Part shown: positions 3,629 to 12,660 of the stretch, piece by piece
Position numbering within the stretch: position 1 is the stretch's first letter
Layout: each line of letters starts with the position of its first letter
Source of the DNA: Endomicrobium sp.
GTDB lineage: Bacteria; Elusimicrobiota; Endomicrobiia; Endomicrobiales; Endomicrobiaceae
NCBI GenBank assembly: GCA_031260705.1
Contig: JAISLA010000002.1
Span: 1-33,997, forward strand
Direction: 5' to 3'
DNA: 33,997 nucleotides
The notes under the pieces: model-generated
Database searches by the model: none
What the model was told of the DNA's origin: nothing
The model's input: only the letters and a program-made list of their open reading frames with translations
Program-made: the position numbers and the translations under genes

Positions 3629-4195
3629 TTATAACTCTTCCATATATGCCTTAGGATGCAGACATGCAGGACACTTCTCTAAAGCTTCCTTACTTTCATA
3701 TACATAGCCACAGTTGCGACATCTCCATCTTACAACTATATCTTTTTTGAAAACTCTGCCGTTTTCAAGATTATTGAGAAGCGCTAAATATCTTGCTTCA
3801 TGATGTTTCTCGGCAATAGCAACTCTTCTGAAACATTCGGCTACTTCAGGAAAATCCTCATCTTCGGCAATTCTTGCCGCTTCCGGATAAATTTTTAAAT
3901 GCTCTTCATTTTCACCTGCAACGGAAGATCTCAAATTTTCAATTGTACTACTTATAATCCCGGCAGGAAAAGTTCCAGTAATTTCAACACAGCCACCTTC
4001 TAAAAATTTAAAAAATCTCTTCGCATGTTCTTTTTCATTATCTGCAATTTCCGTAAAAACTGCAGAAATCTGCTCAAAACCTTCTTTCTTTGCTTTTGAA
4101 GCAAAATAAGTGTATCTCATTCTCGCCTGAGACTCGCCTGCAAACGATTCCAATAAATGTTTTTCCGTTTTTGTTCCTTTAATTGATTTTGCCAT
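3629..4195 (-). CDS. rbr: Rubrerythrin
   Basis: Cytoplasmic non-haem iron peroxidase that reduces hydrogen peroxide to water in anaerobes with electrons from rubredoxin. The 188 residues have a ferritin-like diiron four-helix domain (residues 1-145), with the ligand motifs [16 protein letters not shown] and [10 protein letters not shown]-terminal rubredoxin-like domain has two Cys pairs (CRNCGY and CPACLHP) binding one iron. Length matches the family. A strong Shine-Dalgarno GGAGGTG sits before the ATG, and a perfect TATAAT (minus strand, 4223-4228) is at the right distance upstream, though its -35 is poor. It stands alone between pseudogenes, so it is apparently kept by selection. Confidence 0.95.
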
Positions 4196-5314: not shown

Positions 5315-6505
5315 TTACTTTTCAGTTTTTATCTTTAAAGCAAACGTTTTACCGGCTCCAAAACATTTATTAAGTTCTTCATCAGTCGGATTAAAAACAA
5401 CCCTTAAAGACGGTTCAAAAGCACTCACGCCGAAAACCGTATCCTCTATATCTTTGACAGCTTCGCCGCTCCATCCGTAAGAGCCGAATGCAAAAGATTT
5501 GCGTCCTTTAGCCTTTGATCCTTTAAGAAAATGCAGAAAACCCTTGATAACAGGAAGCATTTCTCCATCATGCGTCGATGAACCGAAAACCCAGCCTTTC
5601 GCATCAAGCATATATGAGGCAATATCCGTTCTGTCATTTTTCGTTACATCAAATAAAACAGCTTCAACGCCTTCCGAAGTTATGCCTTCAACAATTTTTC
5701 CCGCCATTTTTTCAGTAGAATTCCACATTGTTTCATAAACAACAGCGATCCTGTTTTGGCAGGAATGAGACGACCAATAGAGATATTTCTGCATAATTTC
5801 AGGTATATATCTGCGCCATACAAGCCCGTGACTGGGAGCGATAAGTTCAATATCAAGGTTTAATTTACCTATTGCAGAAAGTTTGGCGGCAAAAAGCGCA
5901 TTGAACGGCCAAAGTATATTTGCGTAATACTTCTGCGCCTCATCCATCAAAGCGGCAAAATCAACTTCATCGTCGAAAACTTTGTTTGTCGCATAATGTT
6001 GACCAAAACCGTCATTTGAAAATAAAATTTTATCGTAAGCGGAATATGTAAACATACTATCGGGCCAATGTATCATCGGCACATCTATAAAATTCAAAGT
6101 TCTCTTGCCAATATTTAAACTTTGTCCGGACTTCACGATAGTCCAGTCACCACTTACCCCGTAATATTTTAAAAGTCCCTGTCTTGCTTTTTCGGTTCCA
6201 TAAACTTTTGCACCGGGACATAATTTTAATATTTCCGGAAAGGCTCCGGAATGATCCGGCTCAATGTGGTTAATAATTATTATATCTATCCTGGAAATAT
6301 CAGCTAGTGTTCTTATATTTTCTATCAGCTCTTTTTCATAATCTCTGCGCACTGTGTCAATTAAAGTAATTTTTTCATCGACAATTAGATAAGAATTATA
6401 GGTAACGCCTCTTCTTGTCACATAAGTATATCCGTGAAAATGTCTTTCATTCCAATCTGTCGCACCTACTGCATAAACGCCATCTTGTATTAATCTGACT
6501 GTCAT
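5315..6505 (-). CDS. fprA: Flavodiiron protein (FprA, oxygen/NO reductase)
   Basis: Reduces oxygen to water (or NO to N2O) in the cytoplasm, using rubredoxin as electron donor. The 396 residues start with a metallo-beta-lactamase-like diiron domain (about 1-248). Its ligands are visible: H80-x-E82-x-D84-H85 (HIEPDH), H146 (MIHWPDS), D165 (FSNDGFG) and H226 (PSHGLVW). A flavodoxin domain follows (from NRIAVVYETMWNSTEK, residue 251) with the FMN loop GSSTHDGEM. I chose the ATG at 6505 because it has an AGGAG ribosome site and a promoter directly upstream; an in-frame ATG at 6547 lies inside that promoter. Rubredoxin is encoded 2 kb upstream on the same strand. Confidence 0.95.
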   Translation of the reverse strand: MTVRLIQDGVYAVGATDWNERHFHGYTYVTRRGVTYNSYLIVDEKITLIDTVRRDYEKELIENIRTLADISRIDIIIINHIEPDHSGAFPEILKLCPGAKVYGTEKARQGLLKYYGVSGDWTIVKSGQSLNIGKRTLNFIDVPMIHWPDSMFTYSAYDKILFSNDGFGQHYATNKVFDDEVDFAALMDEAQKYYANILWPFNALFAAKLSAIGKLNLDIELIAPSHGLVWRRYIPEIMQKYLYWSSHSCQNRIAVVYETMWNSTEKMAGKIVEGITSEGVEAVLFDVTKNDRTDIASYMLDAKGWVFGSSTHDGEMLPVIKGFLHFLKGSKAKGRKSFAFGSYGWSGEAVKDIEDTVFGVSAFEPSLRVVFNPTDEELNKCFGAGKTFALKIKTEK

Positions 6506-6526
6506 AATAAAGCACTCCTTTTTTAC

Positions 6527-6554
6527 AGTATAAGGAATACAACACATCAGTCAA
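6527..6554 (-). promoter_or_regulatory. Strong sigma70-type promoter of fprA
   Basis: On the minus strand a -35 TTGACT (6554-6549), a 16-base spacer and a -10 TATACT (6532-6527) lie 22 bases before the fprA start codon. Together with the 250-base gap after nifU this indicates that fprA is transcribed on its own. Confidence 0.6.
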
Positions 6555-6755: not shown

Positions 6756-7133
6756 TTATTTTACCTGTTTAGAATTGTAGTTTTCAACAGCTTTATGCAA
6801 TGCATCCGCTCCTAAATTAGAACAATGCATTTTATTTGACGGCAATCCGCCTAAAGCCTTTGCAACGTCTGCATTTGTAAGATTCATAACTTCTTCAAGC
6901 GTCTTTCCCAGCGCCATTTCCGAAACCATTGAAGAAACGGCTATTGCCGCACCGCAACCGAAAGTTTTAAATTTCACGTCTTCAATTTTATTGTCTTTAA
7001 CTTTTATATAAAAAGTCATCATATCGCCACACACGGGATTTCCCACTTCACCAATACCGTCGGCATCTTTTATTTCTCCGACATTGCGCGGATTTGCGAA
7101 ATGATCCATGACTCTCTCCGAATAAAATGCCAT
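6756..7133 (-). CDS. nifU: Iron-sulfur cluster scaffold NifU/IscU-like
   Basis: Scaffold on which Fe-S clusters are built before transfer to apoproteins. The 125 residues form the single N-terminal NifU/IscU domain. The three conserved cluster-binding cysteines are present in NPVCGDMM, TFGCGAAIA and MHCSNL, and the Asp after the first Cys (CGD) is kept. The C-terminal Nfu domain of long NifU proteins is absent. ATG at 7133 has a GGAGG ribosome site. It is 74 bases downstream of nifS and in the same operon (rubredoxin-nifS-nifU), the usual scaffold/desulfurase pair. Confidence 0.95.
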   Translation of the reverse strand: MAFYSERVMDHFANPRNVGEIKDADGIGEVGNPVCGDMMTFYIKVKDNKIEDVKFKTFGCGAAIAVSSMVSEMALGKTLEEVMNLTNADVAKALGGLPSNKMHCSNLGADALHKAVENYNSKQVK

Positions 7134-7207: not shown

Positions 7208-8467
7208 CTATTCTTCTATATTGCAGTGATCATCATGATGATCATCAAAATCAGTCCCCGGTCCCGCCGCTTTTCTGCTACCGGTCTTTAGAAAATATGA
7301 ATACAGGGGCGACATATCCCTCAATCTTTTAACAATATTTGGAAATTCTTCCAGAACATAATTTATTTCTTCTTCCGTATTAAATTTTGACAGGGTAAAC
7401 AAAATTGAACCCTGCCCGACCGCAACATCAATGCCAATAGCATCTAAAATATGCGAAAGTTTAAGGTTTTTACTGGCACATGCAGAGCCGCTAGATACCA
7501 TGATACCTTTGGCATCTAAAAGCAGAAACAGCGCTTCTCCTTCAACAAACTCTATTGAAAAATTTACATTTCCCGGCAGGCGGTTTTCCCGTGCGCCGTT
7601 TAAATAAATATGTTCTATTCTTTTTGGAAGTTCGGCAATAAGTTTATCTCTTAACTTCTGAACAGCTTTACCATTTTTTACAATTTCATCTTTAGCTATT
7701 TCGCAAGCTTTTCCAAAACCTACAATAGTCGGAATATTCTCAGTTCCGGAACGTCTATAATTTTCTTGAATTCCGCCATCTAGCTGAGGACTAATTCTTA
7801 CGCCTTTTTTAAGATAGAGCGCCGCAGCTCCTTTGGGTCCGTACATTACTGAAGCCGAAAAAGTTAAAGCGTCAACTCCCAAATCTTTAACATCTACGGG
7901 AATCGTTCCGCAGGCACTGACCGCATCCGTATGAAAAGCAACAAATTTACCGGCATTGCTGCTTTCTTTAACTGCAGAAACTAATTTTTTTATGTCCTGA
8001 ATTGTGCCGATTTCGGGATTGGCATATTGTACAGACACTAAAATCGTATCTTTTCTCAGCGCTTTTTTCAATTCAGATTCATCTACATTGCCATTACCGT
8101 CAACCGGAATAAAACTTACTTCAAAACCTTCTTTTTCAAGTTTTTTCACAGAATTTAAAACTGAAAAATGCTCTATTGAAGAGATAATAATATGTCTTCC
8201 GCCAGCCTTTAAAGCTCCGGCAATACCTTTTACTGCCAAATTATTCGATTCGGTACCGCAGGATGTAAAAATAATTTCCTCGGCATCTGCATTAATTAAA
8301 TCTGCAACCCGTCGCCTTGCCGTTTCAAGAGCGTCTTTAGAAAAAGAACCAAAAGAATAAATGCTTTGAGGATTTCCATAATACTCAATAAAAAACGGCT
8401 TCATACTCTCAAATACTCTTTCATCGGGTTTAGTATTTGACTGATTATCCATATATATTCGTTTCAT
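7208..8467 (-). CDS. nifS: NifS/IscS-like protein lacking the PLP-binding lysine
   Basis: A class V aminotransferase fold protein of 419 residues, closely resembling cysteine desulfurases, which supply sulfur for Fe-S clusters. Kept features are SCGTESNN (phosphate loop, 69-76), H100, the ANPEIG segment (N150), D181, the SGTEN loop (240-244) and the mobile catalytic loop SSGSACAS with Cys330. Two key PLP contacts are changed. The usual S-x-H-K of the Schiff-base lysine reads SASV (204-207), so the lysine is Val207, and the Gln that follows HTDAV is Ser184. The tail is rich in Asp and His (FDDHHDDHC, 407-415). The frame is intact and it pairs with nifU, so it is probably expressed but may act as a cysteine-donating scaffold partner rather than a PLP desulfurase. 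Confidence 0.85.
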   Translation of the reverse strand: MKRIYMDNQSNTKPDERVFESMKPFFIEYYGNPQSIYSFGSFSKDALETARRRVADLINADAEEIIFTSCGTESNNLAVKGIAGALKAGGRHIIISSIEHFSVLNSVKKLEKEGFEVSFIPVDGNGNVDESELKKALRKDTILVSVQYANPEIGTIQDIKKLVSAVKESSNAGKFVAFHTDAVSACGTIPVDVKDLGVDALTFSASVMYGPKGAAALYLKKGVRISPQLDGGIQENYRRSGTENIPTIVGFGKACEIAKDEIVKNGKAVQKLRDKLIAELPKRIEHIYLNGARENRLPGNVNFSIEFVEGEALFLLLDAKGIMVSSGSACASKNLKLSHILDAIGIDVAVGQGSILFTLSKFNTEEEINYVLEEFPNIVKRLRDMSPLYSYFLKTGSRKAAGPGTDFDDHHDDHCNIEE

Positions 8468-8473
8468 AAATTG

Positions 8474-8632
8474 TTACTCTTCTTCAAAAGCACTTTTAGT
8501 CGCACCGCATAACGGACACACCCAGTCTTCAGGAAGCTGTTCAAAAAGAGTTTCCGGAGCAATCCCAGCGTCTGGAAGACCTACAGCAGGATCATAAACA
8601 TAATCGCATGCTGAACATTTCCACTTTTTCAT
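8474..8632 (-). CDS. Rubredoxin
   Basis: Small one-iron electron carrier, 52 residues. Both knuckles are present ([10 protein letters not shown] near the start and CPLCGATKS near the end), as is the PEDWVCP segment typical of rubredoxins. ATG at 8632 follows an AGGAG ribosome site. It is the first gene of an operon, six bases before the nifS start. It probably passes electrons to the flavodiiron protein and rubrerythrin encoded nearby. The downstream Fe-S genes suggest expression together with cluster repair under oxygen exposure (inference). Confidence 0.95.
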
Positions 8633-8713: not shown

Positions 8714-10359
8714 TCATCTCTTAAAATTCAGAATCAGAGTTTCAACACTATTTAATAATGCGTTTATGGAATCTTTATCTAAATTCACAGAAGCAAATTT
8801 ATAAAAATCAAACATTCCCAACATTTTTATTATTTCAATTAAAGCCTGATAAAGTAAATCCCGCGACGCTTCAAAATTATTTTCCGAAATCCTGTCTCCG
8901 CCTCCTTTCATAAGTTTTTGTACTTCAGCAAAATGAAAAGTTTTTAATTTTTTAAACGGATTTCTGGATACTCTTCTTACATATAGTATAACGTACGCTT
9001 AAAACGAACAATGCAATAAAAGGAACGAATATCAAATAGAACACCGGCTTTTCTATGAGATATCCTCTATACAATTTAAGTGTTTTTATCCGCTTATTGT
9101 AATCTATACTTTACGCATAATGTCTATTTTTGATTTATGTTTAACATTTTCTTCGGAATGTAAGGGCCCCACTTATGGTGATTTTTTGCGACGATGTCTT
9201 TATGGTTCTCATATTGTTTCTTTAAGAGACTAAAAAAAGACAGGCTTGCTGCAGGTATTTCCTTTTCGCCCGACACAAGCGGAATAAATATAGTTTTAAA
9301 TTTTTTTGAATTACCGGAAGTACTCGCGAATATAGTATCATATTTTTTTAAACCGCTATAAACACCAAAGTTTATGCCGCTTACGCTTTTCATATTCCCG
9401 TTTCCGCTTACAGTTACGGTCAAAGTTACAGGTTCGTTTATCCTGACATCTTTTTTATCAACGACAGCTTTTATTTCAAAATCACCTGCGTCTCCAGAAA
9501 AATCAGCAGGCTTCCCCTCCTTAGGCAAGGAAATAAAATTTATTTCTAATGATTCGGTTTCTAAAATTTTAGTCTTTCCGCCTCCCACATCCGCAAAAAA
9601 ACTGAAAAAATCATTCATTCCGGAAGGCAGCGAAAAATCCATAACCGCTATTTTTAATTTCGCAGGTAAAATTCCTTTTAATCCAGTTCCGACGGGATAT
9701 AAAGTCGTCTCTATTTCGTCAACGCGGGAATTTGAACCGTCTATAACCTCAAAATGATTTTTAGGTTTCGAGCCATCATTCCAAAAACCTGAAAAACCCG
9801 GCGGGGTAGTATTCGGGATTTGATACCAAATCAACTTTCGTATAAAAGCTGAACTTATAAACCAGCTTCTCATTTTCATAAGCAGTTTTCTTATTTAGGG
9901 AAGCTTTTACAAAAGCTTTTCCTGCCGCCGCATTCTGCGATGATGACTGCCGCTGATTAGCGATGACAGGAATACTATTAACGCTTTGAGCCGGTGTAAC
10001 TTCAATTTCTACGCTTTTTGTTAAATACATTTTACCATCAAACGTTATTTTGGCAGGTGGTATTGTAAATCTTCCTATTTTTTTCGGTTCCAAAGTATAG
10101 TCGCGTGTTATGCTCATGCTCGTTTTGCCATTGACTATAGATATGCTATGTGAAACAGCCGTTCCGAATCTGTTAAATTCCAGCACAGCGTCCATCTTAT
10201 ATTCCGGAAGATTCGTACTGTCCCCGCTCACCGTGACTGAATATATAAAAAACTCTTTAACGTCACAGTTTTCTTATTCGCAGATGCCTTAAAATAAATA
10301 GTTTCGGCAGATGCCAAAACAGATGTAAAAAGCAACAGCAGCAATACCTTTTTAAACAT
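8714..10359 (-). pseudogene. batD: BatD, aerotolerance operon protein, broken
   Basis: BatD is a membrane-anchored periplasmic protein of the Bat (Bacteroides aerotolerance) system. The start at 10359 encodes a signal peptide (MFKKVLLLLLFTSVLA). A one-base deletion after about 38 codons shifts the frame, and the protein continues as VSGDSTNLPEYKMDAVLEFNR, then in a third frame from about 9890 (NDGSKPKNHFEVIDGS, VVDKKDVRINEPVTLTVTVSGNGNMK), with beta-sandwich repeats as in BatD. The C-terminal membrane helix (FYLIFVPFIALFVLSV) and the tail RNPFKKLKTFHF are again in different frames, ending at 8714. At least three frameshifts; clearly not functional as one chain. Confidence 0.85.
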
Positions 10360-10360
10360 T

Positions 10361-10729
10361 TTACCAATTCTCTTGGGGTTGATTTAATGCCAGTTTTTTA
10401 TTTTTATTCCTTAATTTATTGGCTTTTCTGTCAGCTCCATTATAATAATTTAAAAATATCGACATAAGCATATCTTTCTTATCTTCTTTTTCTCCTGCCG
10501 GCTGCATTTCTAAAACTCCATATTGCTTTTCTTTCTCAGACTTATCTCTCAGCGGATTGTCCCCTTGAGACCCGTCTTTCCGTTCAGAGAACTTATTCTT
10601 AGTTACTCCAGTCTTTTTTAACGCTTTTATTTTATTGCTTATTCCCAGTTTTTGTTTGTTAAGTTCCAGTTTTTCTTCCTCTAAATTTTTTTGTACATTC
10701 TGCCGTTTTTGAATTTCATCTCTTACGCC
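10361..10729 (-). pseudogene. BatC-like C-terminal fragment without a start codon
   Basis: An open frame of about 122 codons lies between batB and batD, ending one base before the batD start. It overlaps the end of batB, but its first codons (GGC GTA AGA GAT) hold no start codon. It is hydrophilic and probably coiled coil (QKNLEEEKLELNKQKLG) and ends LNYYNGADRKANKLRN...QPQENW. Proteins at this position in bat operons are TPR proteins (BatC) that commonly end with a short basic stretch and an acidic-Asp/Asn-Trp terminus, which fits. Probably the remnant of batC after loss of the start and TPR part; a small intact gene using a rare start codon is the alternative. Confidence 0.5.
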
Positions 10730-11709
10730 TCAGAGGAAATAAAAGTTCCGTAAATAATGCAATTAAACTAAAAAGCAAAAATATCTGGAATCTATCAGTT
10801 TTACTGCTTTTCATGCCGACTTCACTGTTATTTTTATCTAAATTGCGGACGGTTTTTACAAACGACGGATAAACATCGTCATTTGAAGCGTCAAAATATT
10901 TTCCGCCCGTTTCTTCGGCAACACTTTTTAATAAAACAGGATTTACCCTGCTTATAACCACTTTACCGTTTACATCTTTTACATAATCTATTATCGCACC
11001 TGTTTCATCTTTAACAGGAATAGTCGCTCCTTCATCTGTTCCTATTCCGATAGAAATGATTCTTAAACCTGCTTTTTTGCCGCATTCGCAGCTTCTTTTA
11101 TTTTTGAGTCGTGATTTTTGCCGTCACTTATCAGAATCATTACCCTGCTGCCTACAGCCTCACCGCTTGTTGCTTTAGAAGCAAGCATACCCGCGTTGCT
11201 TACGCACGTACCGACTAAAGGAAGGTTAGTTGTTTCAATACTCTGCAAAAACATTTTTAGCGCCTGCAAGTCATAAGTCAAAGGACATTGCCACACAAGC
11301 AGTTCCAGAAAAAATGATAATACCCATTTTCTCACCGGGATTTTCTTCAACAATTCCCCAAATTATCATTTTTACTTTTTCAAGCCTACTCGGCTTTGAG
11401 TCTTCAGCAAGCATGCTTTTTGAAATATCCAAAGCCATAATTATTTCTGAAGACTCCTTAATTACCGTTCTCATTTTATCGCTGTACTGAAGACGAGCCA
11501 TTGCAAGAATAACAAAAAAAGCCCTGTGAGAAGCAAAATATACTTTATTTTATAAGCTTTTAAATTAACAGACACAAGCGTTGATATATTCACCCGCGAT
11601 ATTAAGAGATCCAAATGCTGCTTTCCTTTTTTTAAATACAACATAAAAAAAAGACTACCAACACCGGGATCAGCAATAGAAGCAATAAATAGATTTTATC
11701 CGCAAACAT
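10716..11709 (-). pseudogene. batB: BatB, von Willebrand factor A membrane protein, broken
   Basis: VWA-domain inner-membrane protein. The start at 11709 (AAGGA ribosome site) gives a first membrane helix (YLLLLLLIPVLVVFFF) and a second at ILLLTGLF. A frameshift follows near 11510, then the VWA domain with the MIDAS motif (ALDISKSM) and SRLEKVKMI. Another frameshift comes after GIIIFSGTA, then LISDGKNHDSKIKEAANA, and another before GIGTDEGATIPV. The end VNPVLLKSVAEETGGKYFDAS plus a C-terminal helix (FLLFSLIALFTELLF) is in frame to 10716. Order and domains match BatB; at least three frameshifts. Confidence 0.85.
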
Positions 11710-11851
11710 ATTTCCTTTATGCCTTCTCTCCGCCTATCATTTGATCAGATAAAAAAGTTTAAAAAGACCGGACATTTTAAGTGTTTTATCTCTTAAGCAT
11801 TGCAATCTCCAGTTTTATCGTTCATCCTACTTTTAATTTTTCACTCCGACG

Positions 11852-12660
11852 TTAAGGAAGTTTTCTCAAATAAGTGTTTTCTAAAACGATTATAAGTAAC
11901 AGTAAAATAAAAGCCGGAACCAAAAAATATTTATATAGCTCTCTGTAATTTGTAAACTGTATAACTTCAATCTCATCTTTTTCCAGCTTATCTATTTGTT
12001 TCATTATATTTCCAAAAGATTTTGCGTCCTGCGCCCTGAAATATCCGCCGCCGGTATTATGCGCTATTCCTTTTAAAACACTCTCATTTATCGCATCCTG
12101 TCTATATTTAATTTCTCTTTTACCTAAAAACGGATCATCCACCTCATATCATAAATTGCACCATCAAGACTTCCTACTCCTACAGCATAAATTTTTATAT
12201 CACAGCTTCGGGCTATTTCTGAAGCAGTTAAAGGATCGATTTCTCCCATATTGTTATTTCCATCAGTAACAAGAATTATAATTTTACTTTTAGCCCAGAT
12301 GTCTTTTAACCTATTGACGGAAGTTATTATTATTGACGGAAGTTATTATTGCAGAACCTATTTCATTATTTCTAAACTCCTTTCTATAAAGCCATCAATG
12401 TTATCTATTTCAAACACATCGTTTGGAAACATTTGCTGAGCATTCTGATGCATTTAACTATTCTATCTATAATCGTGATGTACTCCTATCCCGTAATTCA
12501 AATACGTTAGCTAACGCTTCTCCTCAAATATCACACATTAACTGCAGCTACCCACACCCCTCCATAGGTGAGAGGACTGCTATTGATACTAAGTTCCTTT
12601 TAATTCTCTATACCTTTAAAACATTTCGAGATTTGCAACCGCTAATACTAGATAAATACA
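11852..12660 (-). pseudogene. batA: BatA, von Willebrand factor A membrane protein, broken
   Basis: First gene of the bat remnant. Near 12650 the frame reads YLVLAVANLEM and then YRELKG, as in the BatA membrane helix region. The MIDAS part is not recognisable. From about 12390 the VWA core is clear (NEIGSAIITS, KIIILVTDGNNNMGEIDPL, CDIKIYAVGVGSLDGAIYD), then after one frameshift DDPFLGKREIKYRQDAINE, NTGGGYFRAQDAKSFGNIM and a C-terminal helix (FLVPAFILLLLIIVL) ending at 11852. A 19-bp tandem duplication at 12313-12350 also breaks the frame. Confidence 0.8.
12313..12350. repeat. 19-bp perfect tandem duplication inside batA
   Basis: The unit attgacggaagttattatt occurs twice head to tail (12313-12331 and 12332-12350). 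Nineteen is not a multiple of three, so the duplication itself is a frameshift in the VWA core. It looks like a replication-slippage scar. Confidence 0.9.

What the first reader, a model, noticed from the sequence alone, without database searches (positions are those of the whole stretch)
7208..8467. NifS-like protein lacks the PLP Schiff-base lysine but keeps the catalytic cysteine
In cysteine desulfurases the PLP lysine sits in S-x-H-K directly before YGPKG. Here that site reads S-A-S-V (residues 204-207) before MYGPKG, and the Gln that stacks on PLP after HTDAV is Ser184. The rest of the frame is intact, including Cys330, and it lies in an operon with a NifU scaffold and rubredoxin. Archaeoglobus fulgidus IscS is a known case of a desulfurase relative without the PLP lysine that offers its cysteine as a cluster ligand. 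A PLP-free assembly partner fed with free sulfide would suit a sulfide-rich gut habitat (inference).
Basis: partly seen in the sequence, partly recalled or inferred. Interest (0 to 1): 0.7.

Follow-up and report, generated by a model that had tools for sequence, protein, structure and literature searches.

The report
Desulfurase-dead IscS paired with iron-sulfur scaffold
This gut-symbiont gene encodes a relative of the enzyme that strips sulfur from cysteine; it has lost the lysine and other residues needed for that chemistry but keeps its reactive cysteine and its iron-sulfur scaffold partner, and it belongs to a large, conserved bacterial family whose only characterised counterpart is one protein from the archaeon Archaeoglobus.

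Summary
The 419-aa NifS homologue at 7208-8467(-) reads S204-A-S-V207 where desulfurases read S-x-H-K. It also lacks Gln184, Asn151 and Arg356, and keeps Cys330. The window is from Endomicrobia (termite-gut Elusimicrobiota). Of 96 Endomicrobia genomes, 83 carry this form, nearly always directly upstream of nifU, plus five other Elusimicrobiota and WOR-3 bacteria. Every copy I read lacks the lysine and keeps the cysteine. The gene is under purifying selection (dN/dS about 0.1-0.2). Almost every near-complete genome also has one normal lysine-containing IscS, and nearly all lack SUF. The best analogue is A. fulgidus IscS (4EB5), a non-desulfurase that lends its cysteine to the cluster on IscU. 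With PLP-site columns masked, bacterial and archaeal lysine-less proteins form separate clades; one clade is mildly rejected (AU p 0.03), so the state probably arose twice with the same accompanying substitutions. Bacterial members add a conserved, often His-rich C-terminal tail. The scaffold residue at the yeast frataxin-bypass position is Asn and covaries with the residue three after the loop cysteine. A non-desulfurase is nearly certain; a cysteine-ligand assembly platform is likely; sulfide supply and absence of PLP are not shown.

The parts
7208..8467 (-). Lysine-less NifS/IscS homologue (NifSx), 419 aa
   Evidence: AF2 model pLDDT 90.6, pTM 0.88; top PDB folds NFS1, AfIscS, IscS
7847..7858 (-). 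S204-A-S-V207, replacing S-x-His-Lys (PLP Schiff-base lysine lost)
7916..7918 (-). Ser184 in place of the PLP-contact Gln (E. coli Q183)
8015..8017 (-). Pro151 in place of the conserved Asn (E. coli N155)
7400..7402 (-). Leu356 in place of the substrate-carboxylate Arg (E. coli R354)
7478..7480 (-). Cys330, loop cysteine, kept in every member that covers it (105/105 bacterial, 31/31 archaeal)
7469..7471 (-). Lys333, three residues after Cys330; covaries with NifU Asn106
7211..7300 (-). C-terminal extension (residues 390-419): linker ...KTGxRxxAGPGTDx plus His/Asp/Cys-rich end DFDDHHDDHC; absent from canonical and archaeal proteins
   Evidence: disordered in the model from residue 408
6756..7133 (-). 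NifU/IscU scaffold with ligand set C35, D37, C60, H103, C104
   Evidence: TIGR03419 202.8 bits, above the 187.9 cut-off; ligand conservation; only NifU_N hit in this genome
6816..6818 (-). NifU Asn106, at the position of E. coli IscU Ile108 / yeast Isu1 Met141
   Evidence: PMC4440810
8474..8632 (-). Rubredoxin, first gene of the presumed operon, 6 bp before NifSx
   Evidence: synteny
5315..6547 (-). Flavodiiron protein, downstream of nifU
   Evidence: conserved synteny
3629..4195 (-). Rubrerythrin, same neighbourhood

Best explanation
NifSx is a desulfurase-dead IscS that works as a structural partner of the NifU scaffold rather than as the sulfur donor. Shown: it cannot make the PLP-lysine Schiff base; it has also lost the Gln and Arg positions used for PLP and substrate; it keeps the IscS fold, the loop cysteine and the nifU pairing; it is under purifying selection and conserved class-wide. 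Inferred: a NifSx dimer binds NifU, the Cys330 loop swings into the NifU site and gives a temporary ligand that holds a nascent [2Fe-2S] cluster, as in the AfIscS-IscU crystal. Sulfur arrives as free sulfide or as persulfide or sulfide made by the separate canonical IscS. The acidic/His-rich tail may bind or pass iron. The rubredoxin/flavodiiron/rubrerythrin neighbourhood suggests cluster building and repair in an oxygen-sensitive anaerobe.
For: Lys207, Gln184 and Arg356 are lost across the family while Cys330 is kept. E. coli IscS K206A and Q183E have no desulfurase activity (PMC9978102). NifSx sits beside nifU in nearly all loci, and the NifU ligands are intact. dN/dS is about 0.1-0.2, similar to the flavodiiron and canonical iscS genes. 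AfIscS shows the same set of losses and its IscU complex has the loop cysteine as a cluster ligand (PMC7585200; PMC5176006). The model matches 4EB5 and NFS1-ISCU complexes. NifSx 333 and NifU 106 covary. A separate desulfurase exists, and sulfide can feed IscU in anaerobic E. coli lacking IscS (PMC13015791).
Against: I found no biochemistry for any bacterial member. A few lineages keep nifU but have no NifSx beside it (G011, 99% complete, L185; also L186-L189), so NifSx is not indispensable. The 333/106 covariation is not specific to lysine-less proteins: six archaeal lysine-containing IscS pairs show it. The tail function is only suggested by composition.
Confidence: 0.6

Rival explanations
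1. NifSx is a persulfide relay: the canonical IscS loads sulfane sulfur onto Cys330 of NifSx, which hands it to NifU, so the cysteine is a sulfur carrier rather than a cluster ligand.
For: Almost all near-complete genomes keep one canonical IscS. It lies directly upstream of NifSx in genus g13 and beside nifU in some f10 genomes. Cys330 is invariant.
Against: In most genomes the canonical gene is elsewhere, for example next to yqgF/mltG/yajQ-like genes in the window's genome. AfIscS is explained without a relay.
Confidence: 0.17
2. NifSx forms heterodimers with the canonical IscS and acts as a dead regulatory or docking subunit.
For: The R239-x-G-T242 segment, which in IscS reaches the partner subunit's PLP phosphate (established knowledge), is conserved; the genes are adjacent in some lineages.
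Against: AfIscS forms a homodimer in its IscU complex; the genes are unlinked in most genomes; one 0.2 Mb MAG has NifSx but no lysine-containing copy, although it is only 66% complete.
Confidence: 0.1
3. NifSx still uses non-covalent PLP or PMP for a different or slow reaction.
For: D181 and H100 are invariant in 137 lysine-less proteins, and the T/S72, S204 and T242 positions are largely kept. From memory, AfIscS was isolated with PMP (paper not held).
Against: The Schiff-base lysine and general base, Gln184, His206 and the substrate Arg356 are gone together; AfIscS is reported to lack desulfurase activity (PMC7585200).
Confidence: 0.1
4. Pseudogene or sequencing error.
For: The host genome is reduced and has a broken BatD gene nearby.
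Against: Open frame, dN/dS about 0.1-0.2, same change in more than 100 distinct sequences.
Confidence: 0.01

Closest known systems
Archaeoglobus fulgidus IscS (PDB 4EB5, 4EB7, 4HVK; D199K mutant 4R5F)
   Same: Lys lost (D199), His to Asn, Gln to Ala, Arg to Leu, plus the accompanying Asn75, Ser102, Gln147 and Lys333 states; Cys kept; lies beside iscU; same fold.
   Different: 46% identity; separate, probably independent origin; Val rather than Asp at the lysine site; no His-rich tail.
Methanosarcina acetivorans IscS1
   Same: Reported to lack the catalytic lysine and to be a possible AfIscS-like protein (PMC7585200).
   Different: Archaeal and not characterised; its sequence was not compared by name here.
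Canonical NifS/IscS (TIGR03402; E. coli IscS; the window genome's own L001 paralogue)
   Same: Fold, loop cysteine, SPLY/SPLW C-terminal end, operon with nifU in Clostridia.
   Different: No Lys207, Gln184, His206 or Arg356; Ser at 102, Asn at 75, Lys at 333; long C-terminal tail.
MIS minimal system (MisS-MisU)
   Same: A two-gene IscS-IscU homologue module without the accessory ISC genes (described in PMC12442378).
   Different: MisS is described as a type I cysteine desulfurase; the original paper was not held, so I could not check whether it includes lysine-less forms.

Membership tests
Cysteine desulfurase (NifS/IscS) | PLP Schiff-base lysine in S-x-H-K | tested here: not met
   V207 in the window; V, Q, T, S, A, M or I in the bacterial relatives, Asp in the archaeal ones
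Cysteine desulfurase (NifS/IscS) | PLP O3' Gln and substrate Arg | tested here: not met
   Q184 kept in 1 of 106; R356 kept in 0 of 105 bacterial lysine-less proteins
Cysteine desulfurase (NifS/IscS) | Nucleophilic loop cysteine | tested here: met
   C330 in all 136 lysine-less sequences that cover it
Cysteine desulfurase (NifS/IscS) | Fold type I aminotransferase class V fold | tested here: met
   PF00266 238 bits; TM-score 0.88-0.97 to 4EB5
Cysteine desulfurase (NifS/IscS) | NCBIfam TIGR03402 cut-off (530.75 bits) | tested here: inconclusive
   475.8 bits, below, but only 1 of 14 control genomes exceeds it, so it separates poorly
AfIscS-type non-desulfurase IscS | No PLP lysine, cysteine kept, paired with iscU | tested here: met
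AfIscS-type non-desulfurase IscS | Common descent with AfIscS after the loss of lysine | tested here: not met
   Separate clades at 100/99 and 100/98 support; single clade AU p 0.030. A smaller taxon set did not reject it (p 0.294), so the rejection is mild
AfIscS-type non-desulfurase IscS | Loop cysteine ligates the cluster on IscU | not testable with these tools
   Needs a structure or spectroscopy
IscU/NifU scaffold (partner) | Three Cys, Asp and His ligand set | tested here: met
   C35, D37, C60, H103, C104; TIGR03419 above cut-off

The most novel reading that the evidence does not exclude
Bacteria of the Endomicrobia/WOR-3 group evolved, independently of Archaeoglobus, a desulfurase-dead IscS that serves as a dedicated cluster-building platform for their only IscU-type scaffold. 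The same set of active-site positions changed in parallel, a cysteine-loop/scaffold pair (Lys333/Asn106) was retuned at the site that sets frataxin dependence in yeast, and a metal-binding tail supplies iron. This would be an ISC branch in which sulfur delivery and cluster assembly are carried by two separate IscS paralogues.
Probability: 0.35. Interest if true: 0.72.

Novelty: new variant of a known kind. Interest (0 to 1): 0.57.

Why it matters
AfIscS is usually treated as an archaeal oddity. Here the same state is fixed across a bacterial class and in other phyla, apparently by convergence, which argues that an IscS without desulfurase activity is a selected design. It makes testable whether the loop cysteine matters as a cluster ligand independently of its role as sulfur carrier, a point hard to separate in normal IscS. 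It also gives a natural case at the scaffold position that controls frataxin dependence in yeast. Practically, proteins of this family are likely to be annotated as cysteine desulfurases by homology, which is probably wrong.

Tried and rejected
1) NifU Asn106 as a marker of lysine-less partners: first seen in all 104 distinct NifUs beside a lysine-less NifS that cover the position, against 4 of 29 beside canonical. Adding archaeal lysine-containing pairs showed Asn106 there too when residue 333 is Lys, so the pairing is 333 with 106, not lysine loss with 106. 2) Single origin with AfIscS: a first tree did not reject it (p 0.294) and a NifU tree grouped both (95), but that NifU tree held no archaeal canonical partners; with archaeal canonical IscS added, the IscS tree puts AfIscS-type proteins among archaeal lysine-containing IscS and rejects one clade at p 0.030. 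I lean to two origins but do not call it settled. 3) Pseudogene or assembly error: rejected. 4) Gut habitat as the cause: not needed, since members occur in genomes without host origin in their titles. 5) Papers on Endomicrobia Fe-S assembly or on lysine-less desulfurases as pseudoenzymes: none relevant in the held library.

Full report
OBSERVATION. The reported ORF is real: 7208-8467 on the minus strand, 419 aa, ATG start. The PLP-lysine site reads S204-A-S-V207 followed by MYGPKG (codons TCG GCT TCA GTA ATG). Against canonical NifS/IscS the protein also has Ser184 for Gln, Ser206 for His, Pro151 for Asn and Leu356 for Arg; Cys330 is present. By sequence, the closest solved chains are cysteine desulfurases, among them AfIscS. 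A rubredoxin (8474-8632) ends 6 bp before it and nifU (6756-7133) starts 74 bp after it, followed by a flavodiiron protein and rubrerythrin.

WHERE IT IS FROM. The window lies in a 990 kb, 17-contig genome, 81% complete. The best matches are Candidatus Endomicrobiellum and other Endomicrobia, mostly from termite guts, and rumen relatives. The same genome has one lysine-containing IscS (L001, 44% identical, beside yqgF/mltG/yajQ-like genes) and one NifU, and no SufB/D hit.

NOT CHANCE, NOT DECAY. Of 96 Endomicrobia genomes, 83 have a strong match to this protein, as do five other Elusimicrobiota; WOR-3 relatives have it too. Every one of these strong matches that I read is lysine-less. Among 106 distinct bacterial lysine-less sequences, Gln184 is kept in 1, His206 in 4, Arg356 in none, and Cys330 in all 105 that cover it. 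dN/dS between close pairs is about 0.1-0.2. Most near-complete genomes hold exactly one lysine-less and one canonical copy. SUF core proteins were found in only 9 of 96 genomes.

PARTNER AND NEIGHBOURHOOD. The lysine-less gene is directly upstream of nifU in nearly all loci. In family f1 the order is usually rubredoxin - NifSx - NifU - flavodiiron - rubrerythrin. In rumen genus g13 the canonical IscS lies directly upstream of NifSx, and in some f10 genomes the canonical gene lies beside nifU. The NifU ligands C35, D37, C60, H103 and C104 are conserved. A few genomes have nifU without NifSx beside it, including the 99%-complete G011, so NifSx can be lost.

COMPARISON WITH ARCHAEOGLOBUS IscS. 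I wrote the AfIscS sequence from memory and checked it against PDB 4EB5, where it matched letter for letter. AfIscS lacks the lysine (D199) and shares the loss of the Gln and Arg positions, with Asn75, Ser102, Gln147 and Lys333 in common. Across 137 lysine-less proteins, Asn75 and Ser102 are invariant; canonical proteins have mostly Asp and Ala there. The literature reports that AfIscS has no desulfurase activity and gives a cysteine ligand to the [2Fe-2S] cluster on IscU (PMC7585200; PMC5176006). About 30 archaeal loci (one Bathyarchaeota, the rest from the phylum of G295) carry the same S-S-N-D form.

ONE ORIGIN OR TWO. With the PLP-site columns masked, a careful tree gives a bacterial lysine-less clade (100/99) apart from an archaeal lysine-less clade (100/98). 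The archaeal one sits among archaeal lysine-containing IscS. Holding all lysine-less proteins as one clade costs 39.5 log units, AU p 0.030. A previous sample without those archaeal sequences did not reject one clade (p 0.294), and a NifU tree that lacked archaeal canonical partners joined the two. Two origins with parallel substitutions is therefore favoured, not proven.

NEW FEATURES. (a) Bacterial lysine-less proteins carry a C-terminal extension (median 27 residues after SPLY, against 6-7 in the others), with the motif KTGxRxxAGPGTD and three or more His/Cys in 72 of 105; none of 27 archaeal or 79 canonical tails has that His/Cys content. The model leaves residues 408-419 and the Cys330 loop at low confidence. 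(b) NifU residue 106 is Asn in 118 of 118 adjacent lysine-less pairs, and all six canonical pairs with Lys/Arg/Gln at IscS 333 also have Asn106. Thirty-one of the other 36 canonical pairs have V/I/L/M there. This is the position of E. coli IscU Ile108 and yeast Isu1 Met141, where Ile/Leu/Val/Cys bypass frataxin (PMC4440810). The pairing is a lead for a contact between the cysteine loop and the scaffold; it is not a measured contact.

STRUCTURE. An AlphaFold2 model from 60 lysine-less sequences has mean pLDDT 90.6 and pTM 0.88. Its best PDB matches include NFS1-ISCU complexes and AfIscS-IscU 4EB5 at 1.5 A rmsd. The fold is intact.

MECHANISM. Desulfurase chemistry by the known route is excluded with high confidence: E. 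coli K206A and Q183E alone are dead (PMC9978102). The most likely role is a NifU-docking platform with Cys330 as a transient cluster ligand (inferred from AfIscS). Sulfur could be free sulfide, which supports IscU-dependent assembly in anaerobic E. coli without IscS (PMC13015791), or sulfur from the canonical paralogue. My data do not decide between these.

VERDICT. Observation confirmed; interpretation partly supported. It works like AfIscS, but descent from the same lysine-less ancestor was tested and mildly rejected, so I file it as a new variant of a known kind.

Noticed in passing
window 9124-10231 (-): BatD (PF13584) is split over two overlapping frames (9124-9879 and 9776-10231); short unassigned ORFs follow at 10716-12142. 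A Bat-type operon seems to be decaying here.
   Followed up: partly
L185, L186, L187, L188, L189: Endomicrobia loci with nifU but no NifSx gene beside it (for example rubredoxin-NifU-flavodiiron in the 99%-complete G011): natural losses of the lysine-less partner.
   Followed up: partly
L154 (G038:C2): A 0.2 Mb Endomicrobium MAG (66% complete) holds the lysine-less NifS and NifU, with no lysine-containing NifS found; possibly the dead copy is the only one left.
   Followed up: no
L258, L261, L265, L268, L272, L273: Archaeal lysine-containing IscS with Lys333 paired with IscU Asn106: covariation of the cysteine loop with the frataxin-bypass position of the scaffold, independent of lysine loss.
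   Followed up: partly
L246, L247, L249, L252: WOR-3 proteins that lost Lys207 but keep His206 (AGHAF, SAHTF, SSHTF): possible intermediates in the loss of the PLP site.
   Followed up: no
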